Assembly: GCA_022705745.1 (NCBI GenBank)
Contig: JAKJDW010000003.1
Span: 1-64,000 of the forward strand
Direction: 5' to 3'
DNA: 64,000 bases
Origin: Patescibacteria group bacterium
GTDB taxonomy: Bacteria; Patescibacteriota; Gracilibacteria; Absconditabacterales; Absconditicoccaceae
The notes beneath the pieces were generated by a model. It ran no database searches, had not been told where the DNA came from, and was given only the letters and a program-made list of their open reading frames with translations. A program made the position numbers and the translations under genes. Positions 1 to 59,120 of this stretch are shown one piece after another. Position 1 is the first letter of the stretch; each line of letters starts with the position of its first letter.

Positions 1-77
1 GAGCACATTGATCCTTAGAATGACAATCTCCTTTTAATTTTACAAAAAATTTGTTACCGAATTAAGTAACTTGTACA

Positions 78-172
78 GGAGGGTGTTCTCCCCCGCAGTA
101 CTGCGGGGGTAGGTGGGGGTTTTATCTCCAACAACCCCCAACTACACTAGAACAGCTTCCCCCGAGGGAAGG
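78..172. repeat. Composite palindromic element, family A
   Basis: The core is the perfect palindrome CCCCGCAGTACTGCGGGG at about 92-109. It is flanked by a GGTGGGGG/ACCCCCA pair and closed by a TTCCCCCGAGGGAA hairpin at about 157-170. The same ordered modules recur near 25.45, 46.0, 57.2 and 59.0 kb, in both orientations. The layout resembles a non-autonomous mobile element or an extragenic palindromic repeat. Which of these it is cannot be told from sequence alone. Confidence 0.8.
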
Positions 173-383
173 ATTTCCTTCAACTCCCACTATCTGTCAT
201 TTTTTGTATTCGCCTTTTAATTCTACTTGAATGTAGTTTCAAGTCCATCATCTCCAGACTCAATACTAGAACAGCTTCCCCCGAGGGAAGGATTTCTTTC
301 AACTCCCACTATCTGTCATTTTTTGTATTCGCCTTTTAATTCTACTTGAATGTAGTTTCAAGTCCATCATCTCCAGACTCAAT
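146..383. repeat. 119-bp tandem duplication overlapping the 3' end of mtaB
   Basis: Two adjacent 119-bp copies lie at 146-264 and 265-383, and the only difference I see is one base near 178/297. Because 119 is not a multiple of three, the mtaB-like gene reads the two copies in different frames. The first copy read encodes the TRAM-like C-terminus, and the second adds an unrelated tail before a TAG at 190-192. The near-identity suggests a recent event. Confidence 0.9.
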
Positions 384-6091: not shown

Positions 6092-6150
6092 GAAAATTAT
6101 TTTTTCATTGTATTTTTGTATAATTCTTTTCTTTCATCAGCTTATTTTCA

Positions 6151-7470
6151 TGGTAGGCGAGAAGCCCCGCAGTTTTGCGGGGCTCGACCATGTTCTTAAA
6201 TTTAAATTTTATTTATTATGATTTTAGTATTGTTTTCATGGTAGGCGAGGAGCCCCGCAGTCTTGCGGGGCTCGACCATGTTCTTAAATTTAAATTTTAT
6301 TTATTATGATTTTAGTATTGTTTTCATGGTAGGCGAGGAGCCCCGCAGTCTTGCGGGGCTCGACCATGTCCTTAAATTTAAATTTTATTTATTATGATTT
6401 TAGTATTGTTTTCATGGTAGGCGAGGAGCCCCGCAGTCTTGCGGGGCTCGACCATGTTCTTAAATTTAAATTTTATTTATTATGATTTTAGTACTATTTT
6501 CATGGTAGGCGAGAAGCCCCGCAGTTTTGCGGGGCTCGACCATGTCCTTAAATTTATAATTTATTTATTATGATTTTAGTACTATTTTCATGGTAGGCGA
6601 GAAGCCCCGCAGTCTTGCGGGGCTCGACCATGTCCTTAAATTTATAATTTATTTATTATGATTTTAGTACTATTTTCATGGTAGGCGAGAAGCCCCGTAG
6701 TCTTGCGGGGCTCGACCATGTCCTTAAATTTTTAATTTATTTATTATGATTTTAGTATTGTTTTCATGGTAGGCGAGGAGCCCCGCAGTTTTGCGGGGCT
6801 CGACCATGTCCTTAAATTTATAATTTATTTATTATGATTTTAGTATTATTTTCATGGTAGGCGAGGAGCCCCGCAGTCTTGCGGGGCTCGACCATGTCCT
6901 TAAATTTTTAATTTATTTATTATGATTTTAGTATTGTTTTCATGGTAGGCGAGGAGCCCCGCAGTTTTGCGGGGCTCGACCATGTCCTTAAATTTATAAT
7001 TTATTTATTATGATTTTAGTATTATTTTCATGGTAGGCGAGGAGCCCCGCAGTCTTGCGGGGCTCGACCATGTCCTTAAATTTTTAATTTATTTATTATG
7101 ATTTTAGTATTGTTTTCATGGTAGGCGAGAAGCCCCGCAGTCTTGCGGGGCTCGACCATGTCCTTAAATTTATAATTTATTTATTATGATTTTAGTACTA
7201 TTTTCATGGTAGGCGAGAAGCCCCGTAGTCTTGCGGGGCTCGACCATGTTCTTAAATTTAAAATTTATTTATTATGATTTTAGTATTGTTTTCATGGTAG
7301 GCGAGAAGCCCCGCAGTCTTGCGGGGCTCGACCATGTCCTTAAATTTATAATTTATTTATTATGATTTTAGTATTATTTTCATGGTAGGCGAGGAGCCCC
7401 GCAGTCTTGCGGGGCTCGACCATGTCCTTAAATTTAAAATTTATTTATTATGATTTTAGTATTATTTTCA
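6151..7470 (-). repeat. Fifteen 88-bp tandem units mimicking the 3' half of tRNA-Lys
   Basis: Units start at 6151, 6239, 6327 and so on to 7383, exactly 88 bp apart, and the next position in register (7471) is the CCA end of the real tRNA-Lys gene. On the minus strand each unit reads TTAAGGACATGGTCGAG, then the hairpin CCCCGCAAGACTGCGGGG, then CTCCTCGCCTACCA, then an AT-rich spacer of about 39 bp. The first and third blocks match the tRNA from the anticodon 3' flank to the encoded CCA, with minor changes. The T arm is replaced by a longer GC hairpin. The array lies 3' of the tRNA on the same strand, so readthrough from the tRNA promoter would produce a chain of tRNA-half mimics. Units differ by few substitutions and no length changes. 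Confidence 0.92.
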
Positions 7471-7548
7471 TGGTAGGCGAGGAGGGACTCGAACCCTCGA
7501 CCTTGTCCTTAAGAGGGACCTGCTCTAACCAAACTGAGCTACTCACCC
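7471..7548 (-). tRNA. tRNA-Lys (anticodon CUU), CCA encoded
   Basis: The cloverleaf is complete. The acceptor stem GGGTGAG pairs with CTCGCCT, the D stem is GCTC/GAGC, and the anticodon loop CTCTTAA gives CTT at positions 34-36. The T arm is GAGGG TTCGAGT CCCTC, with discriminator A followed by a genomic CCA. The anticodon stem has one non-pair (G27-A43). The gene forms the upstream end of the 88-bp repeat array. Confidence 0.92.
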
Positions 7549-7689
7549 ATTTTCTATGGAAAAGAATATATAGAATTTGCTCTAAAAATCAACCAATATT
7601 CCAAAAAGGCAAAATTATTTGACAAATTTAGAAAAATAATTATAATTGTTGTGTCGAAAATTTAATTTTATATCTTAATAAAAACAAAA

Positions 7690-13993: not shown

Positions 13994-14228
13994 TAGTCCT
14001 TAGTCGCTAGTCGATAGTCGTTAGTCATTAGTCGATAGTCAATAGTCGTTAGTCATTAGTCGATAGTCGTTAGTCAATAGTCGATAGTCAATAGTCATTA
14101 GTCGATAGTCAATAGTCAATAGTCGATAGTCGTTAGTCAATAGTCGATAGTCGTTAGTCAATAGTCGATAGTCAATAGTCATTAGTCGATAGTCGTTAGT
14201 CGCTAGTCGATAGTCAGTAGTCGATAGT
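13994..14228. repeat. TAGTCNN heptanucleotide satellite, 33 units
   Basis: Starting 8 nt after the ATPase stop, TAGTC recurs every 7 bp without a length change from 13994 to 14224, then a partial TAGT. The two variable bases are limited to CT, GC, GA, GT, AT, AA and AG. The order is irregular, with GA the most frequent. No TGA is created. The frames contain TAG or TAA often, so it is not coding. Confidence 0.95.
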
Positions 14229-25329: not shown

Positions 25330-25592
25330 TCCCTTCCTTTTGGCCCCGATAGATTGGGGTTCGGGAGGTTGTAGTCCCCGATTCATTGGGTTAGGTGAGG
25401 TAAGGTCCCCCTTAATAAGGGGGATTAAGGGGGATTTAACTCCCAACTACCCCGCAGTACTGCGGGGGCTCAACTTCCCCGTTGGGGAAGGATTTTTTTT
25501 TGGGAAGTTCTTCCCTTAAAAAAGGGGACAAGCATTCATAAAGTTCATATCCTACCACCTGCCCGCAGTACTGCGGGGCGGGTGGTAGGAAT
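25330..25592. repeat. Mosaic of palindromic modules (families A, B and C)
   Basis: Within 260 nt upstream of a divergent gene pair: CCCCCTTAATAAGGGGG followed by TTAAGGGGGATT (25407-25437), CCCCGCAGTACTGCGGGGG (about 25450-25468), TTCCCCGTTGGGGAA (25473-25487), and CCTACCACC...GGGTGGTAGG enclosing another CCCGCAGTACTGCGGG (25552-25590). No gene is seen in 25293-25713. Confidence 0.85.
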
Positions 25593-42949: not shown

Positions 42950-43384
42950 CTCCGGCCCCGCAGTATTGCGGGGCTAATATTTCAGGAGTGAAATCCGCGG
43001 ACGAGCTCTTTTTTATTTTTTAAAATGAATTTTAAAAAATGTAGGGTATCTTACTTCTAACTTCGTAATTCGTCGACTTCCCACAATAAAAAGATTAGGG
43101 TAGGAAAATCTCAACAAAATGTAGGCGCGCCCCGTAGTACTACGGGGTCGCGCCTGCAGAAAGTGAAAAAATTTATTTAATACTTCATCATGAATGAAAA
43201 GTAGTAGGTTCATACAGTTCATCAAGTTTTAGCCCCCTTTAATAAGGGGGGTAGGGGGGATTTTGTGATAAATGAGGCTTTCTGTTTGATCCCCTTAATT
43301 ATGGAGTTCTCCGTAACGAGCAAGGGGGATAACCACTTTTAACTTTATAAACTTAGCTTCGCGGGCAGCACCCGGGTGGTAGGA
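42950..43384. repeat. Mosaic of palindromic modules (families A-D)
   Basis: From left to right: GGCCCCGCAGTATTGCGGGGC (about 42953-42973), GCGCGCCCCGTAGTACTACGG (43125 on), a family B hairpin set with GGGGGGATTTTGTGATAAATG shared with 2.7 kb (43230-43335), and an ACCCGGGTGGTAGG module (43369-43382). It fills the 530-nt gap between convergent sortase and ackA; no gene is seen there. Confidence 0.8.
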
Positions 43385-46015: not shown

Positions 46016-46180
46016 AGAGTTCCTCCCCTTGGGGAGGCTGTTCTCCCCCGCAGTACTGCGGGGATAGGTGGGGGTTTTATTTCCAACTACCCCCAACTAC
46101 GCTAGAACAACTTCCCCGTTGGGGAAGGATTCTGTGTTTGTACTGATAGAACAACTTCCCCCAAGGGAAGAACTTTTCGA
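46016..46180. repeat. Family A palindromic element between pflB and pflA
   Basis: TTCCTCCCCTTGGGGAGG, then CCCCGCAGTACTGCGGGG, a GGTGGGGG/ACCCCCA pair and TTCCCCGTTGGGGAA, the same module order as at 78-172. Lies inside the presumed pflB-pflA transcript. Confidence 0.85.
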
Positions 46181-52051: not shown

Positions 52052-52060
52052 GTGGGTTTT

Positions 52061-52157
52061 ACATCTTTCCTCTTAGGGCTGGATTTAGCACCTTGCAATA
52101 ATGCAGGTTGCTGAGATGGTTGTAACGAGCCAGTGCTCTTCCATCTTCTCTTGATGT
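52061..52157 (-). promoter_or_regulatory. SAM-I (S-box) riboswitch
   Basis: Minus-strand sequence matches the S-box consensus in order: ATCAAGAGAAG, then GCACTGGCTCG, CAGCAACCTGC, GCAAGGTGCTAAATCCAGC and CTAAGAGG, with P1 formed by ACATC and GATGT. Binding of SAM should stabilise P1 and allow the downstream terminator to form, turning off the small Cys-rich gene. Confidence 0.9.
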
Positions 52158-52226
52158 ATTTTCAAGATATTGATTTTTTTCTAAAAATCAACAAAATTTT
52201 CAATTATGTTTTTTTATTATTTTTTT

Positions 52227-52660
52227 TGGAGATGGCGAGAATCGAACTCGCGTCTAAAAGACATAAATAATAGCGTCTACCACAATAGTTTGTTTATTAA
52301 GCCGTGAATTTTATGTCTTTACAATTGGCAAATTCAAAAGCCAACAAACAGGCAATGGATTTTTTATTGTACAGACATTTGTTTACCTACTTGTGTCTCC
52401 GTCTACCTAGTAGGTGTCTGGTAGAACCGGTTGATACGATCGTATGCCGATGTTATAACCGGCATTGTTCTTACATCCATCTTGCGATGGTGATTGAACA
52501 AAAAACTAGGCGTAGTTTAATACGAAAGCGTTAGCTCTTGCTAACAAATTTTTTGAGTTTGCATTTTTAGATGCTAAGCGATTATTTTAGACTCGGTACG
52601 CTCATCGAGTAGTGGCAACTATTAGATATGAGAATCTTTTATCGAAACCTGTACATCCCC
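52227..52660 (-). ncRNA. ssrA: tmRNA (SsrA)
   Basis: The 5' end GGGGATGTACAGG pairs with the 3' end CATCTCC plus discriminator A. The T arm reads GCGAGTTCGATTCTCGC, standard for tmRNA. A tag ORF at 52506-52562 reads ANSKNLLARANAFVLNYA then TAG. Stem sequences of later pseudoknots (GCCGGTTATAACATCGGC) are visible. CCA is not encoded. It rescues stalled ribosomes and tags products for proteolysis. Confidence 0.92.
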
Positions 52661-57014: not shown

Positions 57015-57032
57015 GTTCGCTCCGCTCACGAT

Positions 57033-57200
57033 AAAATGATAAAATGTTGAAATGATAAAATGATAAAATGATAAAATGTTGAAACTTGTCCCGCTTAGCG
57101 GGATGAATGATAAAATGTTGAAATGATAAAATGATAAAATGATAAAATGTTGAAACTTGTCCCGCTTAGCGGGATGAATGATAAAATGTTGAAATGATAA
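57033..57200. repeat. Tandem ATGATAAA units with 71-bp higher-order repeat
   Basis: Runs of ATGATAAA separated by GTTGAA. A 71-bp higher-order unit ending ACTTGTCCCGCTTAGCGGGA occurs twice (CTTGTCCC at 57085 and 57156). The CCCGCTTAGCGGG forms a hairpin. Related short version at 34.2 kb. Confidence 0.85.
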
Positions 57201-57210
57201 ATTAAATTAA

Positions 57211-57332
57211 AAAGTTCTTCCCTTGGGGGAAGTTGTTCTAATGTAGTTGGGGGTGGTTGGAAGTAAAACCCCCACCTATCCCCGCAGTACTGCGGGGGAG
57301 AACAACCTCCCCAAGGGGAGGAACTTTCCCCA
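57211..57332. repeat. Family A palindromic element (reverse orientation)
   Basis: TTCTTCCCTTGGGGGAAG, GTAGTTGGGGGTGG, ACCCCCACC, CCCCGCAGTACTGCGGGG and CCTCCCCAAGGGGAGG in the reverse order to the copy at 46.0 kb. The frame of the next gene stays open through it, but start homology supports 57415. Confidence 0.85.
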
Positions 57333-58971: not shown

Positions 58972-59120
58972 GCGGGCATCCCTCTTATTAAGGGGGATTG
59001 AGGGGGATTTGTAAATTCAATAGTTGGGGGTAATTGGAGTTTGTTAGGGCTATTTAACCCCTACCTACCCCCGCAGTACTGCGGGGGAGAACACCCTCCC
59101 CCTAGGGAGGAATTTTGTTT
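58972..59120. repeat. Family B plus family A elements upstream of RuBisCO
   Basis: CCCTCTTATTAAGGGGGATT then TGAGGGGGATT (58980-59010), followed by ACCCCTACCTACCCCCGCAG with the CCCCGCAGTACTGCGGGG palindrome (about 59069-59086) and CCCTCCCCCTAGGGAGG. The remaining 59121-59323 region shows no gene. Confidence 0.8.

What the first reader, a model, noticed from the sequence alone, without database searches (positions are those of the whole stretch)
6151..7548. Fifteen-unit array of tRNA-Lys 3'-half mimics attached to the tRNA gene
Each 88-bp unit repeats the tRNA-Lys(CUU) sequence from the anticodon 3' flank to the encoded CCA, but the T arm is replaced by a longer GC hairpin. Spacing is exactly 88 bp in all 15 units, and the tRNA itself is the sixteenth register position. 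On the minus strand the array lies downstream of the tRNA, so it may be co-transcribed and processed into short CCA-ending hairpin RNAs. These could compete for tRNA-end enzymes (RNase Z/P, CCA-adding enzyme, LysRS, ribosome) or be selfish. The CCA-adding enzyme gene is only about 530 nt away. I know of no described system like this.
Basis: partly seen in the sequence, partly recalled or inferred. Interest (0 to 1): 0.9.

Follow-up and report, generated by a model that had tools for sequence, protein, structure and literature searches.

The report
tRNA-end repeats invaded by palindromes
Next to a lysine tRNA gene this small bacterium carries fifteen copies of the tRNA's tail end with one arm replaced by a short GC-rich palindrome; similar partial copies flank about a third of its tRNA genes, occur in most related genomes examined, and resemble a known E. 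coli repeat, so the array is most likely a genomic by-product rather than a new machine.

Summary
In detail: 15 units of exactly 88 bp (window 6151-7470), in register with tRNA-Lys(CTT) at 7471-7548 on the minus strand. Each unit copies the tRNA 3' half up to CCA plus the 3' flank, with the inner T arm replaced by a GC palindrome. The reading as a unique CCA-ending mimic system is not supported. The palindrome belongs to a family dispersed through this genome. Eleven of 37 tRNA genes here have in-register partial copies: upstream copies keep the 5' part, downstream copies the 3' part, and most contain a palindrome, often where the anticodon, T or D arm was. The same occurs in six of seven other genomes of the family and in one of another family. 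E. coli has the same layout at tyrT, lysT and argQZYV (Rfam RtT at the first two). The predicted fold pairs the units' CCA end, the 5' acceptor strand is absent, and pairing beyond the palindromes is no better than shuffled. Best explanation: a satellite born by partial tandem duplication of a tRNA gene, palindrome invasion and repeat expansion, probably co-transcribed. The recurrence of arm-for-palindrome swaps, not the single array, is the interesting part.

The parts
6151..7470 (-). array of fifteen 88-bp units, head to tail, in register with the tRNA gene; tRNA 3' half (anticodon-loop 3' side to CCA) with palindrome in the T arm, plus about 40 bp of AT-rich 3' flank
7471..7548 (-). intact tRNA-Lys(CTT) with encoded CCA, the sixteenth register position and likely source of the units
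7383..7470 (-). unit nearest the tRNA, taken as type unit; palindrome at 7394-7417
6163..6184 (.). palindrome of the most distal unit (AGCCCCGCAGTTTTGCGGGGCT)
7565..7592 (-). weak sigma-70-like promoter (TTGATT-16-TATATT, 9 of 12) just upstream of the tRNA; fewer such sites in the region than in shuffles, so weak evidence
42955..42974 (.). dispersed intergenic copy of the same palindrome family (GCCCCGCAGTATTGCGGGGC)
57280..57321 (.). dispersed composite repeat holding CCCCGCAGTACTGCGGGG next to a CCTCCCC/GGGGAGG hairpin; related copies at about 46022-46127 and 59068-59110

Best explanation
The array is a tRNA-seeded satellite. Steps: (1) a tandem duplication with one breakpoint inside tRNA-Lys(CTT) copied its 3' half plus 3' flank, leaving the gene intact [inferred from register and anatomy; the 5'/3' rule over many tRNAs supports it]; (2) in the partial copy the inner T arm was replaced by a member of a GC-palindrome family dispersed in this genome [family membership shown; the event inferred]; (3) the 88-bp unit was amplified to 15 by unequal recombination or replication slippage, partly in two-unit steps [inferred from the variant pattern]. 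It is probably transcribed by read-through from the tRNA promoter and forms stable hairpins [inferred], but no dedicated function is needed. It is one of many such events: partial, palindrome-bearing copies flank about a third of the tRNA genes of this genome and occur in most relatives examined [shown].
For: Exact register and tRNA-derived ends. Eleven of 37 tRNA genes in this genome have in-flank partial copies, against 11 of 1174 tRNA-flank pairs in the non-cognate control. Rule over nine genomes: upstream blocks hold the 5' part 43 of 49 times, downstream blocks the 3' part 31 of 36, as expected for tandem duplication with one end inside the gene. Palindromes in 15/19 copies here versus 13% of random flank segments (p 1e-9), and in 29/39 versus 5% in the other family genomes (p 1e-25). 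26 of this genome's 54 TCCCG-N3-9-CGGGA sites lie in 44 kb of tRNA neighbourhood, 4% of the genome. The array's own palindrome family is dispersed: 41+30 matches in this genome (13 in the array), 0 in reversed-pattern controls, 1 in the congeneric genome. No similar unit in the relatives searched, so the array is probably recent. Units two apart are more alike than in shuffled order (p 0.013, one of seven lags tested).
Against: Palindromes sit very precisely where tRNA arms were, and in several unrelated tRNAs, which plain drift does not explain; some constraint, or an active mobile palindrome with a target preference, could be at work. No transcript data. No known mobilising enzyme found: no Y1 transposase in this genome. 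Part of the 54-site enrichment comes from tandem copies, which are not independent events.
Confidence: 0.7

Rival explanations
1. RtT-like functional RNA: read-through transcripts of the tRNA are cut into hairpin RNAs, or the array acts as the tRNA's termination, trailer-protection or processing region.
For: Same layout as E. coli RtT; no terminator-like site on the minus strand through the array; a unit folds far better than shuffled (z -4.3). In a 254-nt read-through RNA the tRNA 5' acceptor strand is predicted to pair with a distal unit's CTCGCCT rather than its own 3' strand, so an effect on tRNA maturation is conceivable.
Against: The stability comes from the palindrome: flank pairing outside palindromes is no better than shuffled over 22 copies (combined p 0.39). 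Array absent at the tRNA-Lys of the congeneric genome and not found in other relatives searched. Many partial copies lie upstream of tRNAs, where a trailer function cannot apply.
Confidence: 0.14
2. An active selfish palindrome (MITE- or REP-like) with a target preference for hairpin-forming tRNA arms inserts into surplus tRNA copies and helps them multiply. This overlaps with step 2 of the best explanation but makes the palindrome the driver.
For: The same palindrome types recur at the same arm positions of different tRNAs in one genome (Met and Ile; Val and Ala). In G062 all three exact copies of TCCGCCAGAGGCGGATAAA lie beside tRNAs. The array's family is expanded in this species.
Against: No Y1/REP transposase in this genome; usually replacement rather than clean insertion with a target duplication; gene conversion between tRNA-like copies could also spread palindromes.
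Confidence: 0.25
3. CCA-ending tRNA-Lys decoys that compete for RNase Z/P, CCA-adding enzyme, LysRS or the ribosome.
For: CCTACCA occurs in all 15 units.
Against: No 5' acceptor strand and no T loop; no complete anticodon arm; CCA base-paired in the predicted folds; the CCA-enzyme neighbourhood is shared with other genera, also without such an array.
Confidence: 0.03
4. Remnant attachment sites of integrative elements in the tRNA gene.
For: tRNA 3'-end duplications are typical attachment scars, e.g. those described in Haloquadratum (PMC3119063).
Against: Copies follow each other every 88 bp with no element in between; other tRNAs have 5'-part copies upstream.
Confidence: 0.03

Closest known systems
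RtT RNA / tyrT 178-bp repeats of E. coli (Rfam RF00391, gene rttR), with related copies at lysT, lysV and argQZYV
   Same: In-register tandem or single copies of the tRNA 3' end, up to CCA, downstream of the tRNA; T arm interrupted by a hairpin element; the same element in copies of different tRNAs.
   Different: No RtT match in the window; unit 88 instead of 178 bp; 15 copies instead of three; one simple GC palindrome instead of a multi-hairpin element; the E. coli copies found here are nearly all 3' parts, whereas the genomes of this family have both 5' and 3' copies.
REP/BIME and REPIN palindromic repeats
   Same: Short GC-rich palindromes, dispersed, extragenic, species-specific expansion.
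   Different: No Y1 transposase in this genome; found inside partial tRNA copies in place of arms; GTAG/CGTC tag not tested systematically.
Mitochondrial double-hairpin elements and Rickettsia palindromic elements (general knowledge; papers located, not read in detail)
   Same: Short GC-rich hairpins or palindromes that multiply in AT-rich genomes and enter genes.
   Different: Not tied to tandem tRNA-derived units.

Membership tests
RtT RNA (RF00391) | match to the covariance model | tested here: not met
   No RtT hit in the window at gathering threshold nor up to E 5 in 6100-7560; E. coli tyrT, lysT and lysV loci do match
RtT RNA (RF00391) | in-register copies of the tRNA 3' end downstream of the tRNA, with hairpin material in the T arm | tested here: met
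RtT RNA (RF00391) | stable RNA released from the tRNA transcript | not testable with these tools
   needs RNA data
REP-type palindromic repeats | many dispersed extragenic copies of a GC palindrome | tested here: met
REP-type palindromic repeats | REP-associated Y1 transposase in the genome | tested here: not met
   PF01797: 0 matches; found in 5 of 14 control genomes
REP-type palindromic repeats | GTAG or CGTC tag at one end of the palindrome | not tested
   not examined systematically
Integrative-element attachment site | mobile element or remnant between intact and partial tRNA | tested here: not met
   units are contiguous with an 88-bp period; no ORF of 70 aa or more lies within the array except one at its edge that overlaps the tRNA
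Functional tRNA or tRNA mimic | both acceptor strands and T loop | tested here: not met
   GGGTGAG 0, TTCGA 0 in the array; ARAGORN finds only the one intact tRNA in the region

The most novel reading that the evidence does not exclude
Partial tRNA copies with arms swapped for palindromes are a widespread, so far unnamed class of tRNA-anchored element, from CPR bacteria to E. coli RtT, maintained or spread by a dedicated process that recognises tRNA arms; some arrays, this one included, yield stable hairpin RNAs.
Probability: 0.17. Interest if true: 0.75.

Novelty: new variant of a known kind. Interest (0 to 1): 0.45.

Why it matters
The single array is best read as a satellite, but it exposes a pattern: tRNA genes repeatedly shed partial copies under a fixed orientation rule, and most of these copies carry palindromes, often exactly where a tRNA arm was. 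This links CPR genomes with the poorly understood RtT repeats of E. coli and makes a testable question of how short palindromes move or arise at tRNA genes.

Tried and rejected
Array units in 59 genomes by DNA search: only two short weak matches outside the genome itself. Exact unit core in genome contigs: none (records of this genome may be hidden there). Rfam at relaxed threshold: only chance-level hits. Extended pairing around the palindromes: my first impression of covarying extensions in the Ala and Val copies did not survive a shuffle test over 22 copies. Y1 transposase: absent. tRNA search of the E. coli genome by handle: not held, replaced by ten regions plus tyrT. Integrase attachment sites and tRNA decoys were considered and set aside for the reasons given. 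Literature: no paper found that describes such repeats in Absconditabacteria (open-access full text only).

Full report
WHAT IS THERE. The window lies in a 1.06-Mb draft genome (G000, 66 contigs) that reads well under code 25 (TGA = Gly) and has a tRNA with anticodon UCA, as in Absconditabacteria (SR1) and Gracilibacteria. At 6151-7470 are fifteen 88-bp units in exact register with tRNA-Lys(CTT), 7471-7548 minus. On the minus strand a unit reads: AT-rich spacer of about 40 nt (in the place of the tRNA's 3' flank), then TTAAGGACATGGTC, GAG-CCCCGCAAGACTGCGGGG-CTC, CTCGCCTACCA. The tRNA has TTAAGGACAAGGTC, GAG-GGTTCGAGTCC-CTC, CTCGCCTACCA. So the inner T arm is swapped for a palindrome while the outer T-stem pairs remain. 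Nine of 88 columns vary. Units two apart are more alike than in shuffled order (p 0.013, one of seven lags tried), which suggests growth partly in two-unit steps.

THE PALINDROME IS NOT SPECIAL TO THE ARRAY. The 64-kb window holds 43 GC-rich perfect hairpins against 0-2 in Markov shuffles; 15 of them are the array's. CCCCGCAGTNNTGCGGGG has 41 forward and 30 reverse matches in this genome (self-complementary sites count twice; 13 are in the array), none for the reversed control pattern, 1 in the congeneric genome and 0-12 in other relatives. Several window copies belong to a larger dispersed composite repeat.

IT IS ONE OF MANY. I took the tRNA genes of nine genomes (this one, seven more of its family, one of another family of the class) and looked for 13-mers of each tRNA within 700 bp outside predicted tRNAs. 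Genes with partial copies: own 11/37; G001 2/38; G027 4/37; G006 0/37; G010 2/38; G014 8/39; G062 10/37; G016 5/40; out-of-family G051 10/34 (34 of its 47 tRNAs sampled). Non-cognate control pairs: 0-1.9%. Upstream blocks keep the 5' part 43 of 49 times and downstream blocks the 3' part 31 of 36 times. That is what tandem duplication with one breakpoint inside the gene produces, always leaving one intact tRNA. Tandem groups elsewhere: Val 3.7 x 106 bp, Lys-TTT 3 x 80 bp, Ile 2.2 x 86 bp in this genome; Met 3 x 83 bp in G016 and 2 x 79 bp in G062.

ARM-FOR-PALINDROME SWAPS. Copies contain palindromes far more often than random flank segments: 15/19 versus 13% here, 29/39 versus 5% in the seven other family genomes; 5/12 versus 9% in G051. 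In Met, Ile, Arg, Lys-TTT and Tyr copies here, and Lys copies of G014, G035 and G062, the anticodon arm is replaced by a short GC palindrome such as TCCCG(C)N4-8(G)CGGGA. In Ala and Val copies the junction is GGCTAG| in the D arm; in three G027 copies (Ala, Gly, Asp) it is GGCTA| or GGTTA|. A single downstream copy at tRNA-Val(GAC) of G014 has CCCCGCAGGACTGCGGGG in its T arm, the same design as the window's unit. 26 of 54 TCCCG-N-CGGGA sites of this genome lie in 4% of its sequence, the tRNA neighbourhoods.

FUNCTION. Co-transcription is plausible: a weak promoter-like site precedes the tRNA and no terminator-like site is found on the minus strand up to the array's end. Mimicry is not: the units lack the 5' acceptor strand and T loop, and the predicted folds pair the CCA. 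Pairing of flanks beyond the palindromes is no better than shuffled (22 copies, combined p 0.39), so I see no sign of a selected RNA structure. The array is absent at the tRNA-Lys of the congeneric genome and not found in the relatives searched. At tRNA-Lys(CTT) of other genera different arrays or copies exist: the process recurs, the product does not last.

KNOWN KIN. In E. coli K-12 the tyrT locus has three downstream 178-bp units, each with the last 19 nt of tRNA-Tyr, annotated in part as rttR. I find the same design after lysT, lysW, lysY, lysZ and in the argV-argQ cluster: GGATAACGTTGC..GCAACGGCCCGAAGGGCGAG..ATCC in place of the T loop, followed by the tRNA's own 3' end; 13 of 50 sampled tRNAs have such copies, many of them sharing copies within clusters of identical tRNAs. 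The element is present in 5215 of 5426 E. coli genomes, median 6 places. Rfam RtT matches at tyrT, in the lysT cluster and after lysV. From memory, not checked here: an RNA released from the tyrT transcript was reported by Bosl and Kersten (1991), and rho-dependent termination within these repeats was reported earlier. The window's array is not an RtT member by model but is built like one.

VERDICT. Observation right, claim of uniqueness wrong, decoy mechanism unlikely. What deserves attention is the recurrent, oriented shedding of partial tRNA copies and the precise arm-for-palindrome swaps.

Noticed in passing
own genome G000, loci L002, L148, L151, L155, L158, L159, L160: Palindrome-bearing partial tRNA copies at Val, Ala, Arg, Tyr, Met, Ile, Lys-TTT, His and Leu genes.
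   Followed up: yes
window 1-383, 25400-25580, 46020-46130, 57280-57330, 59060-59115: Composite dispersed repeat of roughly 100 bp with CCCCGCAGTACTGCGGGG and a CCTCCCC..GGGGAGG hairpin, mostly intergenic, MITE- or BIME-like; no Y1 transposase in the genome.
   Followed up: partly
window 14001-14228: Array of a 7-bp unit TAGTCGA (32.6 copies), with a 21-bp higher-order period.
   Followed up: no
window 57030-57201: Nested repeats of AATGATAAAATG with two TCCCGCTTAGCGGGA palindromes, 71-bp period.
   Followed up: no
window 52058-52160 minus: SAM riboswitch just above the gathering score (44.9 vs 44.4 bits), some 65 nt downstream of the tmRNA gene (52227-52660, same strand).
   Followed up: no
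E. coli K-12 loci L248, L251: RtT-like hairpin element in 3'-end copies after lysT, lysW, lysY, lysZ and in the argVYZQ cluster, not annotated in the record at those places; the arg copies do not reach the Rfam RtT threshold.
   Followed up: partly
L240 (G051), upstream of tRNA-Pro(GGG): The sequence behind the partial copy holds an inverted piece of the tRNA's own anticodon arm, suggesting template switching.
   Followed up: no
G062, L243, L245, L246: The 19-nt palindromic element TCCGCCAGAGGCGGATAAA has three exact copies in the genome, all beside tRNA genes (Asp, Leu, Met).
   Followed up: partly
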